This document shows positions 20,822 through 52,261 of a stretch of 64,000 nucleotides of DNA, piece after piece. The stretch comes from Bacillota bacterium. Lineage in GTDB: Bacteria > Bacillota > Dehalobacteriia > UBA4068 > UBA4997. The stretch is from positions 1-64,000 of the forward strand of contig JAETNY010000008.1 of NCBI GenBank assembly GCA_021771915.1, read 5' to 3'. The notes under the pieces are model-generated. The model worked only from the letters and a program-made list of their open reading frames with translations. It did not search any database and was not told the origin of the DNA. The number at the start of each line of letters is the position of its first letter. The first letter of the stretch is position 1. Made by a program: the position numbers and the translations under genes.

Positions 20822-20986
20822 GATAAAAAAGTGGTACATTGAAGAAAAAGAAAAATCTCATAATTATTAAATAACGAGCGACTTGGCTTGGGTATCTTTT
20901 ATTTTATGGGTGGGCAATTTGGGTGAGCAGTCGTTCTGTTAGCAGAGTGGTTGCTGTTTTTATTTTTAGGAAAAGAGGTGATTTTG

Positions 20987-30712: not shown

Positions 30713-30748
30713 AGTAATACTCCTTATTTTTAGGGAGTATTACTTTTA
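30713..30748. terminator. Bidirectional terminator between hydrolase 3 and lipoprotein F
   Basis: A perfect 11-bp stem (AGTAATACTCC with GGAGTATTACT) with a 10-base loop is flanked by T runs. It overlaps the end of the minus-strand lipoprotein gene. Confidence 0.85.
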
Positions 30749-31317
30749 TTTCGTTTATAGCTAGTAAATTTAGCATTTCCATTAACAATTTGGGCTGTAA
30801 TGTAGATATTGGAACTATAAGCATCTAAAGCATAATCTTCACAATATTCTAATAAAATTATTTTAATGTTTTGGGTATCAATAATTTCTGCATTTATGAA
30901 AGCATAAGATGTGCAACCTGTGCCCATGCCAATAGCTTGGGCTGTAATTATCTGGTTAGTAGTATCATATTCTCCTTCAAATTTATTTTCAAACCACTCA
31001 ATGGGCAGATTATAATCATCTATGTAGCTATTGAGAATTTCGTAAATATCTGCTATTGGAATATAGAATGTTTGTTCTGTTTCGTCAAACCAACTATCTC
31101 TTTCATGAAACATAGCAAAAGTATAAAGATTTTTTTCCGGTATGTCTTTTGTATCATTAAAATCACAATAAAATAAAGCTGCCTCAGAAAAATAATCTAC
31201 TATATCCTGCTCTGAATGGTTAGCAAGATATATTTCAGCCTCAGTTTGCTCATTTGTCTGACAAGATGTTAGGGTTATTAACAAAAGAATTAAAGATATT
31301 ATACAAAGTCTTTTCAT
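30730..31317 (-). CDS. Lipoprotein F, candidate immunity protein for the CHAP enzyme
   Basis: A 195-residue lipoprotein: signal LILLLITLTSC, then an acidic mature domain of unknown family (about 175 residues). No sequence kinship to lipoproteins A, B or E was seen, so the geometry rather than the sequence is conserved. It is convergent with the CHAP gene. The minus-strand start ATG 31317 follows AAGGAATGATTTT. Confidence 0.72.
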   Translation of the reverse strand: MKRLCIISLILLLITLTSCQTNEQTEAEIYLANHSEQDIVDYFSEAALFYCDFNDTKDIPEKNLYTFAMFHERDSWFDETEQTFYIPIADIYEILNSYIDDYNLPIEWFENKFEGEYDTTNQIITAQAIGMGTGCTSYAFINAEIIDTQNIKIILLEYCEDYALDAYSSNIYITAQIVNGNAKFTSYKRNKSNTP

Positions 31318-31398: not shown

Positions 31399-31637
31399 CT
31401 GTTTTTTCTATTGATCACTTCCTGTAAATCAGTATTGTATTTCACATAAATATGTAATGAAAAGCCTGAAAGGTAACGCATAAAAACAAAATATTTTAAT
31501 TAAACTGATATTTATTATAGCACTATTATTTTATAAGTTCAAGTTATAAAATTTAGTTGTTTGACGGCGTTCAAATTATAATTTTAACAAGTATATAATA
31601 TATATATAATCAATATTAAATTTTGTGTGGTGATATT

Positions 31638-32033
31638 ATGCCTAAAAAGGAAGTACCGCCTTTTATACAAAAGCTTAGACAGGTCTTTTCTCATAATCTG
31701 GAAGTTTGTAGAAAAAACAAGGGGTATACACAGGATAAAATTTCAGAACTTGTTGGTATTAGTCAGGCTTTTTATTCACAAGTTGAACGTGGCAATAATC
31801 TGGTTGGCTTGCCAGTATTAATGAAATTGGCTAATATTCTTGACGTTAGCGCAAACGCTTTACTTTATGAGCATAAAGAAGCATTAATGAATGAGGATAA
31901 AATCGATTTAAGTGATATTATTATGATGCTATCTGACAGAACGGAAGATGAAATTGCTTTGGTGAAACGAGTAGTTCGCTTTGTTTTGACTGAAATTGAT
32001 AATCAAAAGATAATAGAAAAAGTAGAGTTGTGA
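31638..32033 (+). CDS. XRE-family transcriptional regulator
   Basis: A 131-residue regulator with a Cro/C1-type helix-turn-helix (about residues 15-70, YTQDKISELVGISQAFYSQ) and a short C-terminal helical part. It is directly upstream of a sigma factor gene, the same order as the XRE/sigma pair at 35.9-36.8 kb. It probably controls that sigma gene or itself through the AT-rich dyads upstream. The start ATG 31638 is preceded by GGTGAT. Confidence 0.88.
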   Translation: MPKKEVPPFIQKLRQVFSHNLEVCRKNKGYTQDKISELVGISQAFYSQVERGNNLVGLPVLMKLANILDVSANALLYEHKEALMNEDKIDLSDIIMMLSDRTEDEIALVKRVVRFVLTEIDNQKIIEKVEL

Positions 32034-32044
32034 GATAAAAAGAT

Positions 32045-32521
32045 ATGGATGATAAAAGGAAAAATAATATCAAGAATAACGATGAAAGGCAATCTATTGA
32101 TGAAGAATTGACTTTTGATTCCTTGTATGGTGAATTATTTGGGAAATTTGTCTGGTATATTAAGCAAATCGTTAATGATAAAAAAATTGCAGAAGATATT
32201 GTGCAAGAATGTTTCATAATCGCTTATAAAAAACAAAACGTTTTGTTGTCCAGTCCCAATCCTCGTGGCTGGCTATTTTGGGTTTTAAAAAATACTTTGA
32301 GAAACGATTTAAGGATTAGAAAAGCAATATCCAGAGATTTGATTCTGGTGCCATATGATGGTTGGTTAAATAATCTACCTGATGAAAAGGCCGTAGAAGA
32401 ATATATAGATTTCTTATATAATGATTTATTACAATATGAAGAATACAAATTGTTGAAAAGGTTTGCAGCGGGTAAAGTTCCACAACAGGAATTAGCTGAA
32501 GAAAAAGGTATATTGCACTAG
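32045..32521 (+). pseudogene. Sigma-70-family factor truncated by an IS element
   Basis: The frame carries region 2 (FVWYIKQIVNDKKIAEDIVQE and the RGWLFWVLKNTLRN segment) like the intact sigma factor at 36304. It ends abruptly in region 4, at QQELAEEKGI, where the IS element begins (32514). The DNA-recognition helix is missing and no continuation appears right of the element, so the 3' end was deleted. Residual protein would bind core polymerase at best. Confidence 0.8.
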
Positions 32522-33169
32522 TAAACAAAAATTGGACAATAGATAAAAATATATACAATATCAGATAAAATATATTTCAGCTAAGAATTAGTATACAATT
32601 CTCGGTATTGCTTAGGAGTTAGATAGTTTAATGAATAAGCAGGCCTTTCTTCATAAGCTTACAAAGCAGAGGAATAGGAAAATCTCCAGAAAGTTCCATA
32701 ATTATTTCATATTCTCTTTCTCTAAAGGTGCGAATACCTTTCGGGCGCCATTTCCTTTCACCTCGTAGCCTTTTTTTAATCTGGCTTCATTGATACGAGA
32801 AATTATGAGTTCCTTAATAAACTCTTCTTTGGACATAGATTGAAATTGCTCTAATTTTGTATAGGAGTCAAGAGGCTCAATTCTGGCAGATTCCTTTGCT
32901 GGAAGCAGATTATTATCTCTGTACATACGCATATAATCTCTGGCTGTATTTACAGTTATGCCATATTGCTCGGCAGCCTCCTGTTTGGAAAATTCATTGT
33001 TGTATATTCTACCTCCGATGTGTAATCTTTCTTGCTTGGTGTATTTCATTATGCCCTCCTGTCTATTGTTTGTTTGAAATTGTTTTAATTTAATTGTTGT
33101 TGTTTCAATTATATTATATATGCGGTTGATTTTCCCCTCCTTTGTGTCCAATTTTTGTTTGGCAGTACA
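32514..33169 (-). mobile_element. Internally deleted IS3-family element
   Basis: The ends share a perfect 16-bp inverted repeat (AAACAAAAATTGGACA at 32523-32538; its complement at 33145-33160) and finish in TG...CA. On the minus strand orfA is complete. orfB keeps only its first few codons (MELSGDFPIPLLCKLM) and, out of frame, its end (YSLNYLTPKQYRELY). The DDE catalytic core, roughly 0.8 kb, is lost. No target duplication is seen, and the flanks are unrelated gene fragments, so the element probably mediated a deletion. Confidence 0.85.
32702..33049 (-). CDS. IS3-family transposase OrfA
   Basis: A 115-residue helix-turn-helix protein (EAAEQYGITVNTARDYMRMY) with a C-terminal coiled coil, typical of IS3-family OrfA. 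Normally the ribosome frameshifts near its end into orfB to make the active transposase. Since orfB is deleted, this product can only bind the element ends. The start ATG 33049 follows GGAGGGCATA on the minus strand. Confidence 0.8.
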   Translation of the reverse strand: MKYTKQERLHIGGRIYNNEFSKQEAAEQYGITVNTARDYMRMYRDNNLLPAKESARIEPLDSYTKLEQFQSMSKEEFIKELIISRINEARLKKGYEVKGNGARKVFAPLEKENMK

Positions 33170-33594
33170 ACACAAGGCGTTACCAGTTGGGGGGGGAGCG
33201 TCTGGGAGAATATAAGCGGCACGATTATGTAACCGGCAAATATGAGGTTGGAGTCTTGCCGGAAGGCGTACCGGAGGAAATGGCGGAATTGTTGGCTGAA
33301 TTGCAGGAGGTTAAGTCAAAAAACGCTTTGACGGCAGCGGCCTTTTTTCACGCCAAGTTTGAGAATATTCATCCTTTTGCCGATGGTAATGGTCGCACTG
33401 GGCGCTTGGCAATGAACTATTTTCTGGTTCTGCACAATCACCCACCGATTATTATCCACGAGGAGGATAGAAAGAAATATTATGCGGCTTTGGAGGCTTG
33501 GGACGAAGAATTACAGTTGGAGCCGTTAAAGAGTTTTTTGCGAGAACAGACTGCCAAAACCTGGGCTAAGCAAATTCAAAGATATAAAATATAG
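33170..33594 (+). pseudogene. Fic-family AMP-transferase, N-terminal part missing
   Basis: The C-terminal 140 residues of a Fic protein, with the active-site motif HPFADGNGRTGR intact and the following NHPPIIIHEED region. Family members of this type are about 250 residues, with substrate-binding and ATP-clamping parts before RHDYVTG. Here the sequence starts right at the IS end with RRYQLGGERLGEYK. A G8 run occurs near 33189. An internal start could yield a protein with the catalytic loop, but regulation and binding would be lost. Confidence 0.75.
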
Positions 33595-35905: not shown

Positions 35906-36208
35906 ATGAAATATAAATTAGATGATGATACCAAACAGATATTGATTAAACAGTTAAAATTTTATCGTGAAAAAAGAAATTTTTCACAGGATTTTATGGC
36001 AGAACACATTGGTATTACGCAACCTCTTTATAACAAAATAGAAAATGGTTCAAGAGAAATGACGGTTAATACGCTGGTGAAAGTAGCAGAAATTCTTGGC
36101 ATAAGCATGGATAGTTTATTTGCTGTTGATGAGGATAAAAATGTGATAATGAATAATATTATAGCATTGCTAAAAGGAAAAAGTCAAAGTGATTTAGAAA
36201 TAGTATAA
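35906..36208 (+). CDS. XRE-family transcriptional regulator of the lanthipeptide module
   Basis: A 100-residue Cro/C1-type regulator; the helix-turn-helix spans about residues 15-70 (FSQDFMAEHIGITQPLYNKIE). ATG 35906 follows AGGAGATTGACA. A sigma factor gene follows after 95 bases. The XRE-sigma order repeats the broken pair at 31.6-32.5 kb. It may set the on/off state of the module. Confidence 0.88.
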   Translation: MKYKLDDDTKQILIKQLKFYREKRNFSQDFMAEHIGITQPLYNKIENGSREMTVNTLVKVAEILGISMDSLFAVDEDKNVIMNNIIALLKGKSQSDLEIV

Positions 36209-36303: not shown

Positions 36304-36846
36304 ATGGATAAATATCAATCAGAGGAACAAAATTTGGGGAAAGATTTAACAGAAAATGAGATACAGCTTATTGATGAACTGTACACTGAAATGTATGACA
36401 AATTATTGAGTTTGGCAAAAAAAAGGACTCTCAATACAGATTTAGCAAAAGAAATTGTGCAGGAAACTTTTCGTATTGCTTGTGTTAATATTGAGAAATT
36501 GAAGAATAGTAAAAATCGTCAAGGCTGGCTGGTGATTACGCTAAAAAATGTTACAAACAATGTTTTACACGGTAAATCACGACTTTCAAGTTTATTTTTT
36601 CGGGTATCAGATATTGAAGAAATTGCCGAAGAAGTCCAATTTAATATAGAAGAAAATCTGCCAGATATTTTATATTCTGATATATCTGGAACAGAGGCTT
36701 ATAATTTAATTAAAAAAATTGTTTTTGAACAATATACCACTGTTGAGTTGGCAAAAGAATATGGTGTATCGACTGATGTTATCCGGCAGAGAATACATCG
36801 AGCCAGGCTGAAATTGCAAGATAAGATAAATAACAAAAAAAATTAA
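36304..36846 (+). CDS. Sigma-70-family (ECF-like) sigma factor
   Basis: A 180-residue alternative sigma factor. Region 2 covers about residues 27-95 (DLAKEIVQETFRIACVNIEKL, RQGWLVITLKNVTNN) and region 4 about 130-175 (YTTVELAKEYGVSTDVIRQ). The next gene encodes a membrane protein with a cytoplasmic N-terminus, a normal anti-sigma arrangement. Two copies of a long conserved promoter element, before the membrane-protein gene and before the lanthipeptide precursor, are its likely targets. It is preceded by GGGAGAAGATT. Confidence 0.88.
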   Translation: MDKYQSEEQNLGKDLTENEIQLIDELYTEMYDKLLSLAKKRTLNTDLAKEIVQETFRIACVNIEKLKNSKNRQGWLVITLKNVTNNVLHGKSRLSSLFFRVSDIEEIAEEVQFNIEENLPDILYSDISGTEAYNLIKKIVFEQYTTVELAKEYGVSTDVIRQRIHRARLKLQDKINNKKN

Positions 36847-36853
36847 AAAATGA

Positions 36854-36891
36854 TGTCACAAAACGCATTTGTTAAGACATATATAATATAG
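36854..36891 (+). promoter_or_regulatory. Module-specific promoter, copy 1
   Basis: TGTCACAAAA...GTTAAGACAT...ATAATATAG shares about 32 of 38 positions with 38311-38348. It precedes the DUF4367 gene. By position it is the probable target of the adjacent sigma factor. Confidence 0.65.
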
Positions 36892-36903
36892 GGAGGTGTT
36901 TTT

Positions 36904-37776
36904 ATGAGCAAAGTCGATAAATCAGGGCAGCCAAATTATCATAGATTCGACTTAATGAGTAACGAGGAACTGGAAATTCTTCTGCAAGCATTTTTTGCTG
37001 CCTCGGATGACGAGCAGATGGATTATGATGCTGTAATATATATTTCAGAATTATTGGATAAACGTGAAGGCACTAATGATGAAACTTCACAGGAAGATGT
37101 TGAACTTGCTAAAGCGGAATTTTTTAAGCACTATTATCCGCTTAAAGATGAAAAAACATTATATGATTTTGATGACGATGAACAAAAAAACAAAAATATA
37201 AAAGAAAAAGTTAGTCTGGTACCTTTCCACAAAAGGTTGTGGCGCAGATTTGCAAGTTTTGCAGCAGTTTTAGTATTGTTTTTGTTTGTTGGTACAGTTA
37301 CAGCATACGCTTTAGGCTATAATCCAGTTCAGTATATTGGCAGATGGAATGATGAGCAATTTTGGCTTGAACGTGTATCAATTACACAAGAACTGGCTGA
37401 TGAGGTTGCTGAATATAGTAATATAGCTTGTGTGCCTAAATGGTTGCCAAGTGATTATAAATTTAATGGTTTGGAAATTTCTGAACATAATTTATATATA
37501 TATATTGTTTCTGATTTTTATAAAGAAACAAATAGTAATAATAATGAATTATCTATAGATTATAGGATATATTCTAATCCTGATCAAATGGCCTTGTATG
37601 AGAAGGATAGTGAAAAAGTTACTGAATATATATATGGCGGTATTACGCATTATATTATGAGTAACTTGGATAATATGGTTATTGTTTGGTATAATGGCAA
37701 TATTGAGGGTTCAATTAAAGGCTCGATTTCTTTAGAGGAAGCTAAAAAAATAATCAATTCAATTTACGGAGAGTGA
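36904..37776 (+). CDS. DUF4367-like membrane protein, probable anti-sigma factor
   Basis: A 290-residue protein: a cytoplasmic acidic N-terminus of about 110 residues, one membrane helix (FASFAAVLVLFLFVGTVTAY, about residues 117-136), then an extracellular DUF4367-type domain (YSNIACVPKWLPSDYKF, and the closing ISLEEAKKIINSIYG). Proteins of this build encoded after a sigma gene usually hold the sigma factor at the membrane until a signal arrives. It has its own module promoter and overlaps the 3' neighbour's spacer closely. Sigma binding is inferred from context. Confidence 0.78.
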   Translation: MSKVDKSGQPNYHRFDLMSNEELEILLQAFFAASDDEQMDYDAVIYISELLDKREGTNDETSQEDVELAKAEFFKHYYPLKDEKTLYDFDDDEQKNKNIKEKVSLVPFHKRLWRRFASFAAVLVLFLFVGTVTAYALGYNPVQYIGRWNDEQFWLERVSITQELADEVAEYSNIACVPKWLPSDYKFNGLEISEHNLYIYIVSDFYKETNSNNNELSIDYRIYSNPDQMALYEKDSEKVTEYIYGGITHYIMSNLDNMVIVWYNGNIEGSIKGSISLEEAKKIINSIYGE

Positions 37777-37781
37777 GTTCT

Positions 37782-38195
37782 ATGCGAAAAAAATTAATTG
37801 CTTTGCTGATGATGTTTACTATTATTTTCAGTATGACGGCTGTTGCCAATGCAGCCTTATTTTCAAGTGAATATATTAGTAATTGTTATGCTGCTACAAA
37901 AGTTAGTTCTAATGGGCGTGTTACAGTAAGTTTTGATATAAATGCTACTGATCAGATGGATGTTTTAGGAGCGAAAACCATTATCATCCAAGAACAAGCG
38001 CCGGGTTCAAGCAGTTGGACTTCTATTGCAACATTGAGCAGTGATGATTTTACTAATATGTTGGCATATAATAAAAGGGATTATGGTTCTAATGTATATT
38101 ATAATGGTGGCAAATCTGGTTATTCCTATCGGGCTAAGGTTTATTTTTATGCTGAAAAAGGCGGATATGATACCAAAGAATTTATTACTTATTAA
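37782..38195 (+). CDS. Small secreted protein of unknown function
   Basis: A 137-residue exported protein with signal peptide ending AVANA and a beta-rich mature part (about 113 residues) containing VTVSFDINATDQMDVLGAK. It resembles small DUF6147-type secreted proteins, but I am unsure. ATG 37782 was chosen because the preceding in-frame GTG (37773) overlaps the upstream stop; GGAGAGTGAG lies just before. It may sense or protect from the lanthipeptide, which is speculation. Confidence 0.65.
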   Translation: MRKKLIALLMMFTIIFSMTAVANAALFSSEYISNCYAATKVSSNGRVTVSFDINATDQMDVLGAKTIIIQEQAPGSSSWTSIATLSSDDFTNMLAYNKRDYGSNVYYNGGKSGYSYRAKVYFYAEKGGYDTKEFITY

Positions 38196-38310
38196 TTTAA
38201 GGTTAGAGTTTTAAAATTAGAACAAATTACTAATGCACTTTACAGATACAAATCTGTGAAGTGCATTTCTTATAAAAAAATATATAAATAAAAAAAATAA
38301 ATAAATTAAA

Positions 38311-38348
38311 TGTCACAAAATGCACTTCTCAAGACATATATATTATAG
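38311..38348 (+). promoter_or_regulatory. Module-specific promoter, copy 2, upstream of the lanthipeptide precursor
   Basis: The same 38-bp element as at 36854, with TGTCACAAAA and AAGACATATATA both conserved. Transcription from here would give a leader of about 240 bases before the precursor gene. Confidence 0.65.
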
Positions 38349-38596
38349 AGGGGTAAAAATTACCAATGTAATATCAAAGCAAGATTGCTTGTAAGTAATT
38401 TTTATCAATCTATTAATTTGATACATTTGTGAGCTATAAAATGTTTTCAAGACCAAACTGAATAATGTTACATATAACATTAAGGTAAAAACCTAAGATG
38501 TCCAATGTAGCAAATAATTGTTGCAAAAGTTTGTGTTGGTCGGTGCGAGGGCGCATTTTGCAAATTGGAGCAGCAGGCATAAGGAGGTGAAAAATA
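38349..38596 (+). other. Long leader of the lanthipeptide precursor mRNA
   Basis: No convincing gene. It holds a possible hairpin (GTAAAAATTAC near 38352 with GTAATTTTTAT near 38393) and one arm of a 19-base inverted repeat (38423-38441). The ribosome binding site AAGGAGGTG of the precursor ends it. Confidence 0.45.
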
Positions 38597-38806
38597 ATGG
38601 CAATCTACGAAGATTTTGATTTGGATGTACAGTCCGGAATTAAAAACGATAATGATATGCGTTATGCAACAGAGTATTGTTTGACAAAATATTGCACAGT
38701 GGCAGATACTTGTAAGTGCAGTCTTGATTCTTGTGCAGGTACTTGTCCCAGATAAATATTTAAAATAATTGAAAAAATTTATTAAACTTTTATAGCTCAC
38801 ATTTGT
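38423..38806. repeat. Inverted repeat bracketing the precursor gene
   Basis: The arm 38423-38441 and the complement of 38788-38806 match at 17 of 19 positions, sharing GTGAGCTATAAAA. The right arm is also part of a leader sequence repeated before the second permease gene (about 40090). Confidence 0.5.
38597..38755 (+). CDS. Class I lanthipeptide precursor peptide
   Basis: A 52-residue peptide with an acidic leader carrying the FDLD box (EDFDLDVQ) that class I dehydratases bind, and a C-terminal core with six Cys (residues 28, 33, 39, 41, 46, 50) and seven nearby Thr/Ser. Up to six (methyl)lanthionine rings are possible. The core ends CAGTCPR. The start has an excellent AAGGAGGTG. LanB, LanC and LanT genes lie 6-13 kb downstream. 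I do not recognise the core as nisin-, epidermin- or Pep5-like. The leader cleavage site is not obvious, and no LanP protease was seen in the cluster. Confidence 0.85.
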   Translation: MAIYEDFDLDVQSGIKNDNDMRYATEYCLTKYCTVADTCKCSLDSCAGTCPR

Positions 38807-38849: not shown

Positions 38850-40067
38850 ATGCATTTAAAACGAACATTTGATATTGCAATATTAAACCTGCGCAGTGAT
38901 AAAACATATTTTTGGCAAACAATGCTGGGCATTACTTTAGGTGCAATGACATTGATGATAGTTTTAATAATTTCTCAGGGTGTTTTATACATGACAAAAT
39001 TGACAGCTGGGGAATTTAATCCTAATGTTTTACGTTTAATTTTACAAACCAAACTTGAAGATTCATATAAGCTTAAAATAGATGATTTACAGCAAATGGT
39101 TTCCGATAAATCATATTTATTTACAAGCATTAGCCCTGCAATTCTCATAACGGAAGGTTTGAAATATGAAAATAAATTATTAGATGGTGAATTTGCCGTT
39201 TATGGTGTGAGTGAATCTTTTAATCAGATAATGACTACAATTAATATTGCACAAGGGCGCTGGTTGTTACCTATGGATGTTGTCCGCGAACAAAAAGTCT
39301 GTATTATAGGCAATAGATTGGCTGTAGAAATTCTTGGTGAAGATGCGATTGGTAAAAGTATAAAAATCCAAGGCGATAATTATACCGTGGTAGGTATTTT
39401 ACAAAATGTTAATAGTGATTTACAGGGTGTTAATGATTTTATATTCATACCTTATACTAATGCCCGAAAGTTATCAATATATAGAACTTCGTCAGTATAT
39501 GAGCAGAACAGTGTTGGTTTTGATGTTGTTTTTTTCACTGTAACTGAAACTGCGGATATGCAGGAAGCATATTCAGCTATTCGTGAGGTTTGCCAAGAAA
39601 ACATGGAACAGAATGCAATAGCAGGAATTATGAATTATGACGGTATTGTTGATGAAATACATAAAGCATTATCGCCAATAATCGTAATGCTTGGATTTGT
39701 TTCCATTATAATTATATTAACAGGCGGAACCGGTATTATGAATGTAATGCTGTTAGCGGTTAGTAAACGTACACCGGAAATTGGTGTGCGCAAGGCATTT
39801 GGGGCAACATATAAGGATATTGTTTGGCATTTTATTGGTGAAGCGGCTTGTATAAGTGTTGTTGGCGGTTTGCTGGGTGTGATATTGGGATTGCCTTTGG
39901 GGTGGGTGGCCTGCAAAATTATTCATGTTGTTTTCAGTTTTGCTTTTGTGCCTGCTTCTGCTATTGTGTCTTTTGCTATCGCGGTTGGTTTAGGAATTTT
40001 TTTTGGTGTTAAACCGGCCAGGCAGGCGGCTAAAATGGAAATTGTTGACGCAATCAATAGTGATTGA
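38850..40067 (+). CDS. FtsX/MacB-like ABC transporter permease 1
   Basis: A 405-residue permease: an N-terminal membrane helix (about residues 22-45), an extracellular MacB periplasmic-core-like domain, then three helices with GGTGIMNVMLLAVSKRTPEIGVRKAFGA, the FtsX signature, and the end PARQAAKMEIVDAINSD. It has no ATPase domain; that is supplied by the gene at 42906. It probably serves producer self-protection or export together with the next four genes. A G9 run precedes the start. Confidence 0.9.
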   Translation: MHLKRTFDIAILNLRSDKTYFWQTMLGITLGAMTLMIVLIISQGVLYMTKLTAGEFNPNVLRLILQTKLEDSYKLKIDDLQQMVSDKSYLFTSISPAILITEGLKYENKLLDGEFAVYGVSESFNQIMTTINIAQGRWLLPMDVVREQKVCIIGNRLAVEILGEDAIGKSIKIQGDNYTVVGILQNVNSDLQGVNDFIFIPYTNARKLSIYRTSSVYEQNSVGFDVVFFTVTETADMQEAYSAIREVCQENMEQNAIAGIMNYDGIVDEIHKALSPIIVMLGFVSIIIILTGGTGIMNVMLLAVSKRTPEIGVRKAFGATYKDIVWHFIGEAACISVVGGLLGVILGLPLGWVACKIIHVVFSFAFVPASAIVSFAIAVGLGIFFGVKPARQAAKMEIVDAINSD

Positions 40068-40143
40068 CAGTGATTAAAGAATGAGAAAAATAGCTTACAC
40101 TTGTATATATTTTTTAATAAGGTGTGTTTTCTTTGGAGGAATA

Positions 40144-41409
40144 ATGAATATTAAACAAAGTTTTTACACGGTAATCAGAAATTTGTTTGTAAACAAAATA
40201 CGTTTTTTGCAGACAATATTTACTATGATGATTGGCGTGGCAATGATATTTGTAACCTGCAATACATGCCGATTGCTTTTCGGTTTAGTGGAAGATACCA
40301 TTATTCCTGAAAGTTACAGTGTAATGAATATGTATGTTGATACTAAGGTTGATTATAAACGACCGATAACTATTAATGATATGGAAAAAATCGCTGCCAA
40401 ATATTCAGATTATATTGTTGCAGTTTCTCCTTTTGTATTTGACCATACCTTAAGCGGTAACGTCTGGTATGGCAATAAGCATTTTAAAGATGTATGTTTT
40501 ATCGGAGTGAATGAAAATTATCTAAATGTTATGCCTGATGAGGAGTTGGTCGATGGACGTTTTTTTGAGTATATGGATTGTGCTCGGGAAAGAAATGTAT
40601 GTGTGGTGAGTAGTGATATTGCCAATGAGTTGATGGACGGCGATGCATTGGGACAAACCTTGAAAATCTGGGGCATTAATTGTACGGTTATTGGTATAAA
40701 GCAAAAAACTGGATTAATTTTTGATGACCAAATATTGTTACCATATAACAATGCACAAAAAATAACTGGTGAAAGGATAGAGAAAGGTTATAGTGGTGAT
40801 TATTTTTCAAATCGTTTTGTACTTTTGGCTAACGGTGTGGAGAATATTGGTAATGCTCGCCGAGTCGTTGAGCAAGAGGTATCGGAGTGGATGGGGGAAG
40901 AAGTTAATGCAGACAGGTGGTTTCTGACCTGTGCCAGTAATCTGTTTCTTTATAATCTAAGTAAAGAAAGCGTCTATACAGTAGGCTTTGAGTTGATGTT
41001 CATGGCTGCAATTATTTTAGTGCTTGGAGGTGTGAGTATTATGAACATTATGCTGGCCAGTGTGCGGAAGCGTACCAAAGAAATTGGTATCCGAAAGACT
41101 TTTGGTGCAACTAATAAAGATATTCAACGACAATTTATGCTGGAGGCGGTTATAACTAGTCTAATTGGTGGATTGATTGGTGTGGTTTTTGGGATTATAT
41201 TAAACTTTTTTCTTCCTGTGTTTATTACCAGTATTCCTGTTGGCAACACTGGCGGCTCATATTATACGGCGGATTTGGATATCAGCATTACGTCTTGGCC
41301 TATATTGCTTGCTTTAGGAGTTTCAGTTAGTGTAGGCATTATATTTGGTACTTATCCGGCAAAACAGGCGGCTAAAATGGAAATCGTAGATGCGATAAAC
41401 AGTGATTAA
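40144..41409 (+). CDS. FtsX/MacB-like ABC transporter permease 2
   Basis: A 421-residue paralogue of permease 1 with the same plan. The motif GVSIMNIMLASVRKRTKEIG is present and the C-terminus is nearly identical (AKQAAKMEIVDAINSD). The start was chosen at ATG 40144 behind TTGGAGG. The 35 bases upstream of the ribosome binding site resemble the leader of permease 1, so the two arose by tandem duplication including control sequence. Confidence 0.9.
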   Translation: MNIKQSFYTVIRNLFVNKIRFLQTIFTMMIGVAMIFVTCNTCRLLFGLVEDTIIPESYSVMNMYVDTKVDYKRPITINDMEKIAAKYSDYIVAVSPFVFDHTLSGNVWYGNKHFKDVCFIGVNENYLNVMPDEELVDGRFFEYMDCARERNVCVVSSDIANELMDGDALGQTLKIWGINCTVIGIKQKTGLIFDDQILLPYNNAQKITGERIEKGYSGDYFSNRFVLLANGVENIGNARRVVEQEVSEWMGEEVNADRWFLTCASNLFLYNLSKESVYTVGFELMFMAAIILVLGGVSIMNIMLASVRKRTKEIGIRKTFGATNKDIQRQFMLEAVITSLIGGLIGVVFGIILNFFLPVFITSIPVGNTGGSYYTADLDISITSWPILLALGVSVSVGIIFGTYPAKQAAKMEIVDAINSD

Positions 41410-41426
41410 AGAATGGAACAAAGAAA

Positions 41427-42893
41427 ATGTTAAAAAATAAGAAACTGATTATTACTATCTTGCTGTTAATAATATTTACTGCTGTCTTGTGGTGGTTTAT
41501 CGGTCAGCGAGATAATTCAGAAAATGCTGAAACTTCAGCCTATCGCTATCAGCTGGTGGAGTGCAGCAGCATAATATCTACCCTGGAGGGTGTTGGCACT
41601 GTGCAGCCGGTAAATTCATATACTGTTAAAGCATTAGTAACCGGCGAGGTTTTGAGCGCTCCTTTCAAAGAGGGCGATATGATTGATGCTGGTCAGTTGC
41701 TTTATCAGATTGACGCAGGCCGGGCGCAAAACAGCTACAATCTGGCTCAACTTAACTTGCAAGAAGCTGAGTCCGAAATAGCTGATTTAAGCGTTACTGC
41801 TCCGGCAAACGGCCAAGTGGTAACAATCCATTGTGAGGTTGGCGACAGCGTAAATGTTGGCAGTCAGCTTGTTTATTTACGGGACCGAGAAACAATGCTG
41901 CTGGAAGCACCTTTCAAAGCTGATGAAGCCAAACAGCTGCAAGTTGGTCAAACAGCCGAAGTTATAATGGAAAGCAGCGGTCAACATATTGCCGGTGTAA
42001 TTAAGGAAATATCCAGCGTGGAACAAGTGAGCGCTGGCGGTGTGCTGACGTATAAAGTTACTATTGAAATGGAAAATCCCGGCAGTTTGCAGGAGGGAGA
42101 TTGGGCGGCAGTAGAGGCTGGCGGTTTTGTTAGCGTGCGCAGCGGCCTTTTGGAGTATAACTGGAGCGAGCAGGTTTTAGCCAAAGCCGCCGGTGATGTG
42201 GCAGAAATTCTGGTGGCCGAGGGCGACAATGTAAAACAGGGGCAGGCGTTGCTGCGTCTTTCAGATGAAAATATTCAGAACGATTTGCGCCGGGCACAGA
42301 TTGAACTAGATAACGCCAAGGCTGCGCTGGCGGATTATACTATCACTTCTCCTATTGCCGGAACGGTGATTGAAAAGAAGTTTAATCAGGGCGATACTAT
42401 CGACAGTAACAACAATGCCAGTGAAATGGCGGTTATTTACGATATGAGCAAGCTGGAATTTGTGATGAATGTGGACGAGCTGGATATCGGTCTTATTAAA
42501 GTTGGCCAGCCGGTGCAGGTGGTGGCGGACGCTCTGGGTGGGCAAGAATTTACAGGTTATGTTAGTAAAATCAGCATTAAAGGCAACAGCAGCAACGGCG
42601 TAACCACTTACCCGATAACAGTTACTTTAGATGAGTTTGGCGCTTTGCTGCCGGGTATGAATATAAACGCCGAGGTGGTTTTGCAGCAGGCGGAAGACGT
42701 GCTGGTTGTGCCGATGAACGCAATCAGCCGAGGGCAGATGCTGCTAGTTGAGGGTACAGACGGCGAGCCCAGCGACTTGCCTGGTTACAGCTGGCGGCAG
42801 GTAGAATTAGGTATGAACGACGATTACTATGTGGAAGTTCTCTCCGGGGTGCAGGAGGGAGAAAGAATTGCCATACCAACGAACAGTAATTAA
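41427..42893 (+). CDS. HlyD/MacA-like membrane-fusion protein
   Basis: A 488-residue anchored extracellular adaptor: N-terminal membrane helix (about residues 7-24), two biotinyl-lipoyl-like hairpins (near VNSYTVKALVTGEVLSAPFK and ITSPIAGTVIEKKFNQGD) and beta-barrel segments. It looks like two lipoyl/barrel units fused, longer than typical MacA. It would link the permeases to extracellular substrate or cell envelope. GC is clearly higher than in the two preceding permeases, suggesting a different origin. Confidence 0.88.
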   Translation: MLKNKKLIITILLLIIFTAVLWWFIGQRDNSENAETSAYRYQLVECSSIISTLEGVGTVQPVNSYTVKALVTGEVLSAPFKEGDMIDAGQLLYQIDAGRAQNSYNLAQLNLQEAESEIADLSVTAPANGQVVTIHCEVGDSVNVGSQLVYLRDRETMLLEAPFKADEAKQLQVGQTAEVIMESSGQHIAGVIKEISSVEQVSAGGVLTYKVTIEMENPGSLQEGDWAAVEAGGFVSVRSGLLEYNWSEQVLAKAAGDVAEILVAEGDNVKQGQALLRLSDENIQNDLRRAQIELDNAKAALADYTITSPIAGTVIEKKFNQGDTIDSNNNASEMAVIYDMSKLEFVMNVDELDIGLIKVGQPVQVVADALGGQEFTGYVSKISIKGNSSNGVTTYPITVTLDEFGALLPGMNINAEVVLQQAEDVLVVPMNAISRGQMLLVEGTDGEPSDLPGYSWRQVELGMNDDYYVEVLSGVQEGERIAIPTNSN

Positions 42894-42905
42894 AAGGAGA
42901 GCAAA

Positions 42906-43628
42906 ATGAACGCCGATGTTTTAATCAATTTGCAGAATATTTATAAAATTTACAAAACCGGAGAAACGGAAGTTCACGCTTTGGACGGTGTTACGCTGGA
43001 GATTAGCCGGGGCGAGTTTGTAGCCATTGTGGGAGCCAGCGGCAGCGGCAAAACCACTTGTATGAACATAATCGGTTGCCTTGACGTACCCACATCTGGC
43101 AATTATCATTTGGCCGGGGAGGACGTTTTGGCAATGAACGATAACGCCAAGGCCAAGCTGCGCAACAAAATGTTGGGCTTTATCTTCCAACAGTATAATT
43201 TGATACCCAAGCTGAACTTATGTGAAAACGTGGAGTTGGCAATGTTATATGCCGGTATGTCTGCCGGGGAGCGGCATAAGCGTTCTTTACAACTTTTGGA
43301 AAATGTGGGACTGGCGGATAAAGCAAATAATGTGCCTAATCAGCTTTCCGGTGGGCAGCAGCAAAGGGTGGCGATTGCCAGAGCTTTGGCCGGGGAACCG
43401 GCGGTTATTCTGGCGGACGAGCCCACCGGCGCTTTGGATAGCCAGACCGGTCGGGAGGTGCTGGATATTTTACGGCAACTTAATCATGAGGGGCGGACAG
43501 TTGTGCTGATTACCCACGATAATTCTATTGCCCGGCAGGCGCAGCGGATTGTACGGCTGGAAGACGGCAAAATTATCTATGACGGCTCGGCTGACGGTGA
43601 AGCCGCCATTGTGTCAGCAGTTCAATAA
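42906..43628 (+). CDS. ABC transporter ATPase (MacB/LolD type)
   Basis: A 240-residue ATPase with Walker [11 protein letters not shown]-loop [10 protein letters not shown], signature [15 protein letters not shown] and Walker [12 protein letters not shown]. It should power the three permeases of this cluster. AAAAGGAG precedes ATG 42906. The stop overlaps the next permease start by one base. Confidence 0.95.
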
Positions 43629-44809
43629 TGGCTATTCGTCAAGCCTTTGTAATGGCTTTGAAAAGCCTGCTGGCTCGCAAGGTACGCTCTCTGCTGACTA
43701 TGCTGGGCATTATTATCGGCGTGGCGGCGGTTATTGCTATTATAACGATTGGTCGGGGTACTATGGCTAAGGTTGAGGCTCAGTTTGACAATATGGGAGC
43801 TAATATGATTAGCGTCAGCATATATAACCGGGACAGTACCAGGCAAATTGATGTTGAAGATATGTATGAGTTGGTGAGCAATAACCCCGACCTGCTTTGC
43901 GATTTAAGTCCGATTGTAACAATGGGGGGCGGCATTAAATATGGTAATGCCAGATATAGCCGAACAACAATTTATGGTGTTAGCGAGGCTTATCCTAAAA
44001 CCCAGCTGTTGGAATTGACCGAGGGCAGTTTTCTGCAATATATGGACGTGGAACGTCAGGCTAACGTTTGCATTGTGGGCAGTTTTATTGCAAACGAGAT
44101 TATGGGTGGCGCTGCCTTGGGCAATACGCTTAAAATCAGAGGACAGAATTATACGGTAATAGGAGTGCTGGCCGCAATAGATGATTTGAACACTGGCGAG
44201 GGCGGCCCTGATGATGTGATTTATATTCCTTACTCCAATATTTTGAAGCTGGGCGAAACACCGTTTGTGGGAAGTTATACCCTTAATTCGCTTACTCTTG
44301 AATGTTCGGAGGCGGCAGTGGCGGCCATTGAGCAGCGTTTGCTGGCGTGTTACGAAAAGGACGATTATTTCAATATAACCAGCCAAAAAGAACGAATGGA
44401 AATGATGTTATCAATGCAAGATAATATGCTTTCTGTTTTGAAGATGATAGCCGGTATTGCGCTGCTGGTGGGCGGCGTAGGCATTATGAATATTATGTCT
44501 ATTTCGGTATCGGAGCGCACTAAAGAGATTGGCGTACGGAAATCCTTTGGAGCCAGACGGCGAGATATTCGCCTGCAATTTATTGTTGAGGCGAGCAGCA
44601 CCAGCGCTGTTGGCGGTTTGCTGGGGGTTGCGGTTGGTGTGCTTGTAAGCTTTATTGCCTGTCGGGTTATGGAGCTGACGTTTAAGTTGGCAGCGGATTC
44701 GATTTTGCTATCCTTTGGCGTTTCGGTTGGCATAGGAATTGTGTTTGGCTTTCTGCCAGCCACTAAAGCAGCCAGATTGGAGCCGATTGACGCTTTAAGA
44801 TATGATTAA
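43628..44809 (+). CDS. FtsX/MacB-like ABC transporter permease 3
   Basis: A 393-residue permease with the same architecture as permeases 1 and 2. N-terminal ARKVRSLLTMLGIIIGVAAV and GGVGIMNIMSISVSERTKEIG are typical. It is translationally coupled to the ATPase and has similar GC, so ATPase, permease 3 and the membrane-fusion protein look like the ancestral set to which permeases 1 and 2 were added. Confidence 0.92.
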   Translation: MAIRQAFVMALKSLLARKVRSLLTMLGIIIGVAAVIAIITIGRGTMAKVEAQFDNMGANMISVSIYNRDSTRQIDVEDMYELVSNNPDLLCDLSPIVTMGGGIKYGNARYSRTTIYGVSEAYPKTQLLELTEGSFLQYMDVERQANVCIVGSFIANEIMGGAALGNTLKIRGQNYTVIGVLAAIDDLNTGEGGPDDVIYIPYSNILKLGETPFVGSYTLNSLTLECSEAAVAAIEQRLLACYEKDDYFNITSQKERMEMMLSMQDNMLSVLKMIAGIALLVGGVGIMNIMSISVSERTKEIGVRKSFGARRRDIRLQFIVEASSTSAVGGLLGVAVGVLVSFIACRVMELTFKLAADSILLSFGVSVGIGIVFGFLPATKAARLEPIDALRYD

Positions 44810-44824
44810 AAAAGGTGATTGATT

Positions 44825-47800
44825 ATGAAGTATAAGGCAGCGGAACATATGCTAATGCGTTGTCCAACCAGAAGTTTGAATGAGTTTTATGATTTTGCCA
44901 AGTTGTCAGATGATGAAATTATGGCTTTCTGCCGGCAGGATAAGCTATTTGCGGAGGCAGTGGCTATTGCTTCACAGGATTTATATAAAATGTATGCAGA
45001 TAATTCCGGCAAAACAACAACCAGAATGTTGGAGTCCGTTAAAAAATATTATGACCGTATGACTGCCCGGCCAACTCCTTATGGACTGTTTGCCGGTGTA
45101 ACTACCGCCCAATTTAGTGATGATGGCACAAATATTTGCTTGGCGAGACAAGAAAAATATCATAAAATCTGCCGAGTTGATAATGAGTGGTATTTTAAGC
45201 TGGTCAAAAAGATTGAGGAAACACCTGGCTTGCTGTTTAATTTGCAGGTCATTTTTAATAAGCATTGCTATAAAGTGTATGGCCGCTTAAAGAATGGCTA
45301 TTGTTCTAATTTGCGCAAGGAAAATGTTAATCACGCCGAGGATTTGCATATCAGATACACCAAACAGGTACAATATGTGCAGGAGTTTGCCAGCGATTTT
45401 GTGCCTTTTAAGGATTTGCGAGATTTTTTAATAAACAAAAATCCCAATGTGCCACCGGAGATTATTGATAAGTTCTTAAAAGAATTGTTGCTAAATGAGT
45501 ATTTATATACAAATATCTGCGTTTTGTCCAATGAAGAAGATTCTCTGCACAGGCTGCTCCAAGAAAATGATTTTCATAATTTATCTGGTGATGAAGCAAT
45601 CTTTATCCAAAAGCTTCAGGAAATAGACAGGCTGAGGGAGAAATATGCACAACTGCCCTTTGGTCAGGGCGAGGAAATTTTAGCCCAGTTATCTGGACTT
45701 ATGGAGCAAGTGGTTAAGGCCAAAAATTATATCTATACAATTTTGCAGCTAAATGCGATAAGTAACAAATTGGACAGCAAAATAAAAGATGATTTGGAGG
45801 CTTTTTCGGAATTTATGCAGGCTGTTGCCACGCCGGATAATGAAGGTGAGCAGTTGCTGGCCTTTAAAGAGGCTTTCCGGGAAAAATATGGCTCTGACGC
45901 AATGGTTTCTCTGCTGGAGGTTATTGACGCAGATAAAGGCATTGGCCTGCCTTATAGCGGTTATATTGCTGAAGTAAACGCTGCCAAATATGCAAGGAGA
46001 AACTCCAAAAAGTTAGACGCTATCAAGATGATGTTGGAAAATAAAATGTTGACAGCGTTAAGGCAAGGCCAATCTGTGGTGGAAATAACCGATAAAGATA
46101 TAGAACATATAAAAACCATTGATAGTGAAGTAATTAACAAATTAGGTTATGTCAGTTCATTTAGTTTGAATGTATTGCTAACCCAAAATGGAGCAAATTA
46201 TGAAATTCATATTGGGCCAAATGTTGGCTCTACGCAGGCTGGCAACGGTATAAGCCGCTTTGACGCTGCCCTGAATAATGAATTTTCGCAGGAAATGGAC
46301 GCAATATATGCTAAAGAAAAGGCTTTGCATAGGGAGGATTATGTTATTGCCGATGTTTACGAGGTATCGCACTATTTAAGAAATACCAATTTATACAGCT
46401 ATAAACGTCAGTATGATTATAATCTTTATTTAGGTATAACCGAGTTTGAGCATAACACATCTCTTAATCTCAACGATTTCTATTTAGGTTATGATGGTCA
46501 GAAAGACCGAATGTTTATTTGGAGCAAGTCCTTAAATAAACGAGTTAAGTTTATGACTAACAGTATGTATAATGCGCAATCCAGCAATCCGATTATTCGC
46601 TTTTTGCGCAATATTTCTGCCAGTTATGAACTCCCAATGATAGACAATATGTTTGTTTTTCAAAATCTTAAATTTGCATATTGGCCAAAGATCAAATATG
46701 GCAATATTGTATTGGCTAATGAAAAATGGCGCTTAACCCCGGAACAATTTGCTGGCTGTTCTGAGAAAGATTTTGCAGCGACCATGCAAAAATATTTTCA
46801 AATATGGCAGTTACCTGAATATGTATATTTTACTCGCAATGATAATCGTTTGATTTTAAATCTGAAAGATGAATTCACGGCTAAACTGTTATATCGGGCC
46901 CTGGTTAAGCAAAAGCAGCAGGTTGTTCTCGAACGTATGGAGTATGAAAATATTAGCAGTTCTGTGGCAGTGGATAAACAAGGGATGTTTTATGCGGCGG
47001 AGTTTAGCGTACCAATGTTTAGTCAGGAATTAGCAGAAAAACAGCCAGTTGCCAATGTAAAGGATATAACACCATATACCAAGCCAAATCTTATAGACAA
47101 CTTTTACCTACCCCAAAGAGTTCTATATCCTGGTGATGATGGTTGGTTGTATTTTAAAATATATCTAAATCCCATACAGGCCAATCCCTTTTTGGCGCAG
47201 TATTTAGAGCCGTTTCTGACTGATATGTTTGAGTGGGAAATAATTAAAAGCTTTTTCTTTATCAAGTATACTGACCCTAAATATCATATCAGGTTAAGGT
47301 TGCAACTTACTGAGCAAGACAAGTTGGGTGTTGCTTTGCAAAAATTCCGGGAATGGTTTAGGCTATTGCAGGAAAATCTGATAGGCTATGAATACGCTAT
47401 TGCTCAATATGAGAGAGAAATCGAAAGATATGGCGGTTCAGCCTTAATACCATATGCTGAGGATTACTTTTGTCAGGACAGCCGGTTGATTATTGCTTTA
47501 TTGCAAGAGATAAGCAAGGACGCTGAAGAAATTGAGCGAGAGAAAATCGGTATATTTGTGATACATAATCTGGTGGACTGTTTTTGCGGTAGTTTGCAGA
47601 CAGACAGTGATTTTCTGGTTAAATATACCGATAATATTGAGTATAAAGATTTATTCAGAAAAAATAAAAAGGACTATCTGGCAGTTATTGAAGATGATTA
47701 CATCAACAATTTTTCAGAAAAAACACAAAAAATAATTTCAGACAGAGAAGCGGCTATAAAGCAATATGTGAAGCATATCAAACAGACAGAACACGAAAAA

Positions 47801-47977
47801 CAACTTTCTACAAGTCTGGATAATATTTTACTAACCTTAATCCATATGTTTTGTAACCGCTATAACGGTAATCGGGAATGGGAGCGCAAGGTTTTGTTTT
47901 TAACCAGGCATACCGTTTTTACCAAAAACAATATAATGCTGCACAACAAGAATAATAAAAGAGGTGAGCTTAAATGA
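44825..47977 (+). CDS. lanB: Lantibiotic dehydratase LanB
   Basis: A class I dehydratase of about 1050 residues, normal full length. The N-terminal glutamylation domain has RPTPYGLFAGV near residue 80 and continues to about residue 750; the C-terminal SpaB_C elimination domain contains SFFFIKYTDPKYHIRLRL (about residues 800-1030). It uses glutamyl-tRNA to dehydrate Ser/Thr of the precursor. AAAGGTGATT precedes; I prefer ATG 44825 to TTG 44819. The stop overlaps the lanC start by 4 bases. Confidence 0.95.
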   Translation: MKYKAAEHMLMRCPTRSLNEFYDFAKLSDDEIMAFCRQDKLFAEAVAIASQDLYKMYADNSGKTTTRMLESVKKYYDRMTARPTPYGLFAGVTTAQFSDDGTNICLARQEKYHKICRVDNEWYFKLVKKIEETPGLLFNLQVIFNKHCYKVYGRLKNGYCSNLRKENVNHAEDLHIRYTKQVQYVQEFASDFVPFKDLRDFLINKNPNVPPEIIDKFLKELLLNEYLYTNICVLSNEEDSLHRLLQENDFHNLSGDEAIFIQKLQEIDRLREKYAQLPFGQGEEILAQLSGLMEQVVKAKNYIYTILQLNAISNKLDSKIKDDLEAFSEFMQAVATPDNEGEQLLAFKEAFREKYGSDAMVSLLEVIDADKGIGLPYSGYIAEVNAAKYARRNSKKLDAIKMMLENKMLTALRQGQSVVEITDKDIEHIKTIDSEVINKLGYVSSFSLNVLLTQNGANYEIHIGPNVGSTQAGNGISRFDAALNNEFSQEMDAIYAKEKALHREDYVIADVYEVSHYLRNTNLYSYKRQYDYNLYLGITEFEHNTSLNLNDFYLGYDGQKDRMFIWSKSLNKRVKFMTNSMYNAQSSNPIIRFLRNISASYELPMIDNMFVFQNLKFAYWPKIKYGNIVLANEKWRLTPEQFAGCSEKDFAATMQKYFQIWQLPEYVYFTRNDNRLILNLKDEFTAKLLYRALVKQKQQVVLERMEYENISSSVAVDKQGMFYAAEFSVPMFSQELAEKQPVANVKDITPYTKPNLIDNFYLPQRVLYPGDDGWLYFKIYLNPIQANPFLAQYLEPFLTDMFEWEIIKSFFFIKYTDPKYHIRLRLQLTEQDKLGVALQKFREWFRLLQENLIGYEYAIAQYEREIERYGGSALIPYAEDYFCQDSRLIIALLQEISKDAEEIEREKIGIFVIHNLVDCFCGSLQTDSDFLVKYTDNIEYKDLFRKNKKDYLAVIEDDYINNFSEKTQKIISDREAAIKQYVKHIKQTEHEKQLSTSLDNILLTLIHMFCNRYNGNREWERKVLFLTRHTVFTKNNIMLHNKNNKRGELK

Positions 47978-52046: not shown

Positions 52047-52261
52047 TATATGTATTTTATTTCATATTAATGATTGGAGAGATGTAATGTGTGTAATATT
52101 GTTAAAGATTCATTGGGGAATTTCGATACAGTTCAATAAGTCGTTATGCCTGTATTAGTGTATTATGGTTCATCTTACAACTGAATATTTTTGGCTGTCG
52201 TTCGCCTCCTTATTTTTAAGGTTTCTAAATTATAGAAATTTTGAGATTAAGGAGATTTTTT

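What the first reader, a model, noticed from the sequence alone, without database searches (positions are those of the whole stretch)
36854..38348. Sigma/DUF4367 circuit with a shared 38-bp promoter upstream of the lanthipeptide precursor
The elements at 36854-36891 and 38311-38348 match at about 32 of 38 positions, including TGTCACAAAA and AAGACATATATA. They precede the putative anti-sigma gene and the precursor. Lanthipeptide control by an ECF-like sigma and membrane anti-sigma factor, in place of a LanRK two-component system, is unusual, though known in a few actinomycete clusters.
Basis: partly seen in the sequence, partly recalled or inferred. Interest (0 to 1): 0.68.

Follow-up and report, generated by a model that had tools for sequence, protein, structure and literature searches.

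The report
Private sigma switch controls lanthipeptide genes
A gut bacterium appears to switch on an antibiotic-like peptide with its own dedicated sigma factor and matching promoter, one of many such look-alike but separately addressed switches, several of them side by side in the same genome.

Summary
The elements at 36854-36891 and 38311-38348 match at 33 of 38 positions, identically over the -35 (10 nt) and -10 (8 nt) cores, and occur exactly twice in the 2.3-Mb genome (next best: 3 mismatches, as in the reversed control). The neighbours are an ECF-type sigma, a membrane DUF4367 protein, a small secreted protein and a class I lanthipeptide cluster.

This is not a single case. The genome has 8 sigma/DUF4367 pairs; 7 carry an element of the same layout between sigma and DUF4367, each with its own -35/-10 letters. 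Over 15 modules from this and related genomes, 11 repeat their own version before downstream, mostly secreted, cargo; two such cargoes here are lanthipeptide clusters. Sigma region 2 diverges with the -10 and region 4 with the -35, not the reverse, as expected if each sigma reads its own element. A genome of another family shows the same layout.

Best explanation: a self-limiting cassette in which the sigma drives its own anti-sigma gene and local cargo, not itself. No transcript evidence exists; DUF4367 binding the sigma, the signal and the role of the small protein are inferred. New variant of a known kind (ECF and sigma-I circuits).

The parts
35906..36208 (+). XRE-type helix-turn-helix regulator ahead of the sigma gene
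   Evidence: PF01381 53 bits; an XRE gene precedes sigma in the C18, C21, C13 and C31b modules of the same genome
36236..36264 (+). possible vegetative promoter (TTGGAA-17-TATAAT) of the sigma gene
   Evidence: consensus match only; 70 such matches in the region against 58.2 in shuffles, so weak
36304..36846 (+). ECF-type sigma factor (regions 2 and 4 only)
   Evidence: PF04542 and PF04545 above cut-off; TIGR02937 43.5 bits against 42.9; family profile matches solved ECF sigma factors, best SigL
36854..36891 (+). element D: predicted cognate sigma promoter of the DUF4367 gene; predicted start of transcription near 36888-36891 (inferred)
   Evidence: GTCAC-N15-AGACA has the spacing of the MibX consensus GAACC-N15-GCTAC (PMC4973701, passages)
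36904..37776 (+). membrane protein with cytoplasmic helical N-terminus, one membrane helix and extracytoplasmic DUF4367 domain: predicted anti-sigma factor
   Evidence: PF14285; model with helix 108-136; C-terminal part matches RseB, Z 9.4, rmsd 3.0, 93 residues
37782..38195 (+). small secreted protein (137 aa, signal peptide judged by eye), weakly lactococcin-972-like; same operon as DUF4367 by position
   Evidence: TIGR01653 20 bits, below cut-off 32.1; family alignment A1 of 10
38311..38348 (+). element T: predicted cognate sigma promoter of the lanthipeptide operon; predicted start near 38345-38348 (inferred)
   Evidence: top-scoring site of the window for a matrix made from 15 other modules
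38349..38596 (+). 5' leader of the precursor mRNA, with an A+U-rich 5'-terminal stem conserved in the C18 cluster
   Evidence: alignment, folds; only one sub-threshold Rfam hit, and not in this stretch
38597..38755 (+). class I lanthipeptide precursor (52 aa, leader MAIYEDFDLDV)
   Evidence: ORF; leader conserved and core different in the C18 cluster; no family hit
38850..44809 (+). MacB/FtsX permeases (38850-40067, 40081-41409, 43628-44809), HlyD-type protein (41427-42893) and ABC ATPase (42906-43628)
   Evidence: the ATPase named from its sequence only
44819..47977 (+). LanB dehydratase
   Evidence: PF04738 383.5 bits, PF14028 171.3 bits
47974..49323 (+). LanC cyclase
   Evidence: PF05147 139 bits
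49339..51123 (+). ABC exporter (LanT-like)
   Evidence: MsbA-type ABC exporter hits, below equivalog cut-offs
31443..31478 (-). orphan target element of a decayed second module, ahead of the lipoprotein gene 30730-31317 (-)
   Evidence: third-best site of the window; same site ahead of the orthologous lipoprotein in L071, where sigma is intact
32045..32521 (+). truncated sigma (region 2 only) of the decayed second module, with XRE gene 31638-32033
   Evidence: only PF04542 found; intact orthologue L071 4447-4995, followed by DUF4367

Best explanation
The locus is a self-contained ECF sigma/anti-sigma cassette that controls a class I lanthipeptide operon. The sigma (36304-36846) is made from an ordinary promoter in the XRE-sigma region and is held by the DUF4367 membrane protein. 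An unknown envelope or extracellular signal, sensed by the RseB-like DUF4367 domain, frees it. The free sigma reads GTCAC-N15-AGACA with the AAAA that follows GTCAC, at two places only: ahead of its own anti-sigma gene (with the small secreted protein), giving negative feedback, and ahead of the lanthipeptide precursor and the genes behind it. Each related module has its own -35/-10 letters, so co-resident cassettes should not cross-activate. Shown by computation: the pair of elements, their uniqueness, the family rule, and the sigma-domain/element co-divergence. Inferred: transcription from the elements, sequestration by DUF4367, the signal, and read-through of the lan operon.
For: Uniqueness in the genome; the C21, C18 and C13 elements likewise occur at 0 mismatches only at their own loci (3, 2 and 3 copies), next hits at 3 mismatches or none. 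Leave-out matrix ranks the two sites 1 and 2 of 127,930. Best-site scan over 2.3 kb downstream (865 bp for L051): in 11 of 15 modules the own element scores at least as high in its own locus as in any other (10 strictly, 1 tie). Core identity within modules 16.8 of 18 against 10.5 between modules, spacer 5.5 of 10 against 4.9 (11 modules). Region 2 follows -10 (partial r 0.53, 0 of 20,000 permutations) and region 4 follows -35 (partial r 0.57, p 0.0001), crossed partials -0.08 and 0.03, 13 modules. DUF4367 proteins are sigma-linked elsewhere: 24 of 29 loci have a sigma gene directly 5'.
Against: No transcription start, no expression data. 4 of 15 modules show no local second copy (C31a, L066, L069, L051; L051's contig ends after 865 bp). 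One sigma/DUF4367 pair of this genome (C42) has an 8-bp gap and no element. The DUF4367 N-terminal part found no anti-sigma fold (inconclusive), and its divergence does not track sigma region 2 (r 0.23, p 0.13) or region 4 (r 0.09, p 0.34). C3's -10 AGACA is not the classical CGT.
Confidence: 0.82

Rival explanations
1. The elements are operators for another DNA-binding protein, such as the XRE regulator next to the sigma gene, and the sigma acts elsewhere.
For: An XRE gene accompanies the sigma in five modules of this genome (C3; C18, C21, C13, C31b), and every element contains a TATA stretch that could serve a vegetative promoter.
Against: Chromosomal modules C16 and C31a have the element but no XRE gene beside sigma. 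The -10 block tracks sigma region 2 and the -35 block region 4. Fixed 10-10 spacing in 16 of 16 elements aligned by hand equals the MibX spacing.
Confidence: 0.08
2. The two copies are alike because of a recent duplication or gene conversion and carry no regulatory meaning.
For: In C3 the similarity runs over 63 nt at 76%.
Against: Cores are identical while spacers differ. In the C3/C18 comparison all 11 module-wise differences fall in the cores, and both position-wise ones fall in the spacer. The rule repeats in 11 of 15 modules with different letters.
Confidence: 0.03
3. The elements are vegetative (sigma-A) promoters, with TATAAT in the TATATATAATAG part, and the upstream block is an activator site.
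For: TATA at positions 28-31 is invariant in all 16 aligned elements, while the sigma-specific block varies.
Against: No TTGACA-like block at 16-18 nt upstream of that TATAAT (read); the variable blocks covary with the two DNA-reading domains of the sigma.
Confidence: 0.05
4. The sigma drives the element, but DUF4367 is not its inhibitor; it is an envelope sensor or immunity protein that merely shares the regulon.
For: The N-terminal region has no recognised anti-sigma fold and no co-divergence with sigma.
Against: Sigma-DUF4367 adjacency in 24 of 29 loci across the phylum, 22 of the 24 overlapping or within 2 bp; membrane topology of an anti-sigma factor and an RseB-like outer domain.
Confidence: 0.12

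Closest known systems
MibX/MibW of the microbisporicin cluster (Microbispora corallina; PMC4973701, passages)
   Same: Pathway-specific ECF sigma and anti-sigma in a class I lanthipeptide cluster; promoter GAACC-N15-GCTAC has the same 5-N15-5 spacing.
   Different: There mibX is itself under the element, mibXW are co-transcribed, and the precursor operon lacks the element and needs MibR. Here the element lies between sigma and anti-sigma, and directly ahead of the precursor; the anti-sigma is of the DUF4367 type.
Sigma-I/RsgI paralogues of cellulolytic clostridia (PMC6056542, passages)
   Same: Many paralogous sigma/anti-sigma pairs in one genome, each with its own promoter letters and its own secreted output.
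   Different: Another sigma family with A-tract and CGAA promoter motifs and usually autoregulated; regulons of cellulosome genes. Here the specificity lies in both -35 and -10, targets are mostly local, and sigma is not under the element.
RseA/RseB and MucA/MucB control of sigma-E/AlgU (function recalled)
   Same: The DUF4367 domain model resembles the C-terminal domain of RseB and MucB.
   Different: Sensor fold fused to the predicted anti-sigma in one protein; the match is structural and modest (Z 9.4, 16% identity).
Lactococcin 972 family
   Same: One of 10 members of the small secreted family hits TIGR01653.
   Different: 20 bits against a cut-off of 32.1; Pfam gives no match for the window member.

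Membership tests
ECF sigma factor | regions 2 and 4 only, joined by a short linker (the feature kept in the current definition; PMC8103513 passage) | tested here: met
   only PF04542 (26-85) and PF04545 (141-172) pass cut-off, 180 aa in all; top PDB matches are ECF sigma factors
ECF sigma factor | gene next to a cognate anti-sigma gene | tested here: inconclusive
   adjacent DUF4367 membrane protein gene; inhibition itself untested
ECF sigma factor | positive autoregulation (older defining feature, no longer required) | tested here: not met
   no sense copy scoring above 14 of 18 upstream of the own element in 15 of 15 modules, 0.57-1.9 kb searched
ECF sigma factor | AAC in -35 and CGT in -10 (older feature, no longer required) | tested here: not met
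   C3 has GTCAC and AGACA; other modules vary (e.g. C31b ACGTCA)
Transmembrane anti-sigma factor | cytoplasmic domain, one membrane helix, outer sensor domain | tested here: met
   predicted model, mean pLDDT 73.7: helices 13-76, helix 108-136, beta-rich domain to 273; sidedness inferred
Transmembrane anti-sigma factor | known anti-sigma domain fold at the N-terminus | tested here: inconclusive
   no such fold among the Foldseek and VIA-align matches
Transmembrane anti-sigma factor | binds and inhibits the cognate sigma | not testable with these tools
   needs two-hybrid or pull-down
Sigma-I/RsgI | A-tract in -35 and CGAA in -10 | tested here: not met
   CGAA in none of the 16 aligned elements' -10 blocks; C3 has AAAA but AGACA
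Sigma-I/RsgI | RsgI-type anti-sigma domain | tested here: not met
   only DUF4367 found by Pfam
Class I lanthipeptide cluster | LanB with N- and C-terminal parts, and LanC | tested here: met
   PF04738, PF14028, PF05147
Class I lanthipeptide cluster | precursor with FxLD-type leader and Cys/Ser/Thr core | tested here: met
   MAIYEDFDLDV... with 6 Cys, read from the ORF; motif recalled
Lactococcin 972 bacteriocin | score above the TIGR01653 cut-off | tested here: not met
   20 bits against 32.1; 1 of 10 members at E 0.1

The most novel reading that the evidence does not exclude
Mobile elements in these gut Peptococcaceae carry an addressable control cassette (XRE - sigma - own promoter - DUF4367 anti-sigma - small secreted protein - same promoter - cargo) whose -35/-10 code has been driven apart between cassettes, so that several can live in one cell without cross-talk and any secreted cargo, lanthipeptides included, can be plugged in behind the element. 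In the boldest form the small secreted protein, encoded directly behind DUF4367 in the element-borne cassettes, is the ligand of its outer domain, making each cassette a private self-sensing circuit.
Probability: 0.4. Interest if true: 0.78.

Novelty: new variant of a known kind. Interest (0 to 1): 0.6.

Why it matters
It gives a natural set of at least 11 sigma-promoter pairs, six with local pairing in one genome (one of these with a broken sigma), in which the target promoter can be read off the DNA because it is repeated inside the module. That makes the ECF promoter code (region 2/-10, region 4/-35) testable on natural orthogonal pairs and supplies parts for orthogonal switches. It assigns a likely role to DUF4367, for which the held library has no paper. 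It predicts how to switch on two lanthipeptide clusters of an uncultured gut lineage, by expressing their sigma, and it would extend ECF control of lanthipeptides, described in actinomycetes, to Clostridia, with the element directly at the precursor.

Tried and rejected
A loose promoter pattern gave only chance numbers of matches. A first genome pattern with the wrong spacing found nothing. Rfam gave one sub-threshold hit and nothing in the leader. A shared RNA structure in the leaders of six secreted-cargo genes was tested and not found (12 pairs, -0.48 kcal/mol). The A+U-rich stem at the 5' end of the two lanthipeptide leaders is real in sequence but rests on two sequences. The DUF4367 N-terminal domain modelled alone (pLDDT 69.9) gave no match with Z of 5 or more; no known anti-sigma domain was among the rows, which excludes nothing. 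Co-divergence of sigma with the DUF4367 N-terminus, expected of a cognate pair, was not seen. The C-terminal part of DUF4367 correlates with the promoter spacer (r 0.46, p 0.0016), for which I have no explanation. No relative of the small secreted protein in viral contigs and none of DUF4367 in plasmids. Lactococcin 972 membership was considered and dropped. Sigma-I membership was considered and dropped.

Selection effects: the targets T were chosen as best matches to D in the same locus, so that call's contrast is inflated; one search repeats the test without choosing, on equal stretches of all loci (L051 only 865 bp). Elements were aligned by hand. One search used 11 modules with sigma proteins in alignment A3, with one promoter (C31a) taken from its orthologue; one search repeated it with 13 and 14 modules. 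Left out there: C31b (broken sigma), L069 (partial sigma), G007:C4 (broken sigma), C42 (no element). In one search the crossed raw correlations are not zero (region 2 with -35: r 0.23, p 0.04; region 4 with -10: r 0.30, p 0.02); they vanish only as partial correlations. The 29 loci are the best-scoring DUF4367 matches that were turned into loci, L003 of this genome dropped, not a random sample; the 5 misses are L120 (sigma overlapping by about 98 bp, outside my limit), L137 (DUF frame at a contig edge) and three with no sigma found.

Full report
1. Observation. The core pattern occurs twice in the window against none in 100 shuffles. In the whole genome it occurs exactly twice; everything else needs 3 mismatches, no more often than the reversed control (4 places against 7). 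The surrounding proteins are a two-domain sigma, a DUF4367 protein, a small secreted protein, and LanB and LanC; transport proteins follow. The precursor ORF 38597-38755 has no family hit, but its leader MA[I/M]YEDFDLDV is conserved, with a different core, in a second cluster of the same genome.

2. The same layout elsewhere. The genome has 7 DUF4367 genes by Pfam and 8 by a profile of alignment A2, each with a sigma gene directly ahead (in two frames in C31b). Between sigma and DUF4367, 7 of the 8 carry an element of the same form: a 10-nt -35 block, 10 free nt, an 8-nt -10 block, then TATA. C42 does not (8-bp gap). Six of the seven (C3, C18, C21, C13, C31b, C16) repeat their own version 1.1-1.5 kb downstream, C21 and C13 twice. 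A genome scan for relatives of the small protein gave 13 loci, recorded as uncultured Peptococcaceae, Eubacteriales, Lachnospiraceae or Bacillota, one named Candidatus Avidehalobacter gallistercoris; that contig has the length of a contig of G003, a genome of the window's own genus, so the genus is probably Candidatus Avidehalobacter (inference). With the related genomes this makes 15 modules with an element, and a sixteenth, decayed, in G007:C4.

3. Each module has its own letters. The similarity between the element before DUF4367 and its own repeat is 16.8 of 18 core positions, against 10.5 between modules; in the spacer it is 5.5 against 4.9 of 10 (11 modules). Because repeats were picked by similarity, I repeated the test without picking: for every element, the best site in equal stretches of all 15 loci. 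The own locus is strictly best in 10 of 15, ties in 1 and is not best in 4. Against Markov-shuffled stretches, 0 of 400 reach the own score in 10 of these 11 modules and 1 of 400 in L071. Whole-genome searches with the C21, C18 and C13 elements find 3, 2 and 3 exact places, all in their own module; further hits need 3 mismatches (one, none and one). In the C3/C18 comparison, where the leaders downstream are clearly related, 11 of 11 module-wise differences lie in the -35 and -10 blocks, and 2 of 2 position-wise ones in the spacer: the spacer remembers ancestry and the blocks follow the sigma.

4. The sigma reads the element. Region 2 of a sigma reads the -10 and region 4 the -35 (established knowledge; the two can be shuffled with their boxes, PMC8103513 passage). 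Over 13 modules, region-2 distance follows the -10 distance when region 4 is held constant (r 0.53, 0 of 20,000 permutations), region-4 distance follows the -35 when region 2 is held constant (r 0.57, p 0.0001), and the crossed partial correlations are near zero (-0.08, 0.03). Four choices of domain limits gave the same picture with 11 modules. Spacers follow neither domain in these 13. With G219 added the result stays. These modules share ancestry, so the p-values are rough; the crossed comparisons are the better control. A matrix from 15 other modules puts the two C3 sites at ranks 1 and 2 of 127,930 positions in the window. Rank 3 is a site ahead of a lipoprotein gene beside a truncated sigma; in L071, where that sigma is intact, the same site is present.

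5. The feedback sign. In none of the 15 modules is there a sense copy scoring above 14 of 18 upstream of the element, where a sigma-gene promoter would lie. So the sigma does not appear to drive itself; the first target is the DUF4367 gene. Elsewhere in the phylum, DUF4367 genes mostly overlap or abut the sigma gene (22 of the 24 sigma-linked loci among 29 examined, gap of 2 bp or less), leaving no room for a promoter. One of the two exceptions, L127 in G219 (another family), shows the same layout: XRE, sigma, element, DUF4367, and a second element with 3 mismatches to the pattern, with 2 places in that 2.0-Mb genome and 0 in the reversed control. The split arrangement is therefore not confined to this genus.

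6. DUF4367 as anti-sigma. Adjacency and topology point that way, and the outer domain resembles RseB and MucB (Z 9.4 for 93 residues, rmsd 3.0, 16% identity; BT_1490 follows at 8.4 and PsbP-like chains at 7.9, so the lead is modest). Not supporting: the N-terminal part shows no known anti-sigma fold and no co-divergence with sigma. Binding remains unproved.

7. Cargo. Behind the repeated element lie lanthipeptide clusters (C3, C18), a BNR/YCF48-like lipoprotein with a glycoside-hydrolase-like protein (C21), signal-peptide proteins without family (C13, L064, L065, L068), a cysteine-protease-like protein (L063), a cupin and collagen-like protein (C16), and a small protein with a region-4-like helix-turn-helix (C31b, L071) (signal peptides and the collagen-like repeat judged by eye). 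Several modules lie beside relaxase-like or recombinase genes (relaxases recognised by eye). The chromosomal C31a module has no local repeat, but its element recurs once in trans at 0 mismatches to a combined pattern, ahead of a MacB/FtsX permease, HlyD-type protein and ATPase operon (names from sequence likeness).

8. What is known. The microbisporicin sigma MibX has the consensus GAACC-N15-GCTAC, spaced as here, but the precursor operon lacks it and mibX is under its own control (PMC4973701, passages). Paralogous sigma-I factors with private promoters are known in cellulolytic clostridia (PMC6056542, passages). No paper in the held library contains DUF4367. Searches for lantibiotic with ECF sigma and anti-sigma, for lanthipeptide with sigma factor and Firmicutes, and for ECF sigma with bacteriocin and integrative elements listed no paper that, by title and abstract opening, describes this arrangement (listings only; 12 of 44 shown). 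The library misses most subscription journals.

Noticed in passing
window 31443-31478 (-), 30730-31317 (-), 32045-32521 (+): Remnant of a second module: truncated sigma and XRE gene with an orphan target element ahead of a lipoprotein gene; DUF4367 not found there.
   Followed up: yes
L043 808-11698 (same genome, contig C18): A second class I lanthipeptide cluster with the same cassette, same leader and 5' leader RNA but a different core peptide and different promoter letters.
   Followed up: partly
L116 1741-5372 (G000:C16:81740-85371): A trans copy of the C31a element directly ahead of a MacB/FtsX-HlyD-ATPase operon related to the transporter genes of the lanthipeptide clusters.
   Followed up: partly
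window 52241-52729 (+): Small protein with a sigma region-4-like helix-turn-helix (PF08281 20 bits, below cut-off); homologues are the direct cargo of modules C31b and L071 and may be a further layer of control.
   Followed up: partly
window 38349-38420 and the L043 leader: 5'-terminal 12-13-bp A+U-rich stem (GGTAAAAATTAC/GTAATTTTTATC) in both lanthipeptide leaders; secreted-cargo leaders start alike (GGGTAAAAATTACC) but show no shared fold.
   Followed up: partly
window 20309-20821 and 20951-21382 (+): A sigma-region-4 protein followed by a small membrane ORF that looks like a UviA/UviB (holin) pair; recognised by eye for the second.
   Followed up: no
window 33142-33594 (+), 30129-30695 (+), 58351-59433 (-): Fic-domain ORF, CHAP-domain ORF and Mrr-type restriction endonuclease ORF flanking the cluster.
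   Followed up: no
L148 2929-5847 (G219:C36): Same XRE-sigma-element-DUF4367-element layout in another family, without the small secreted protein; the cargo gene is cut by the contig end.
   Followed up: partly
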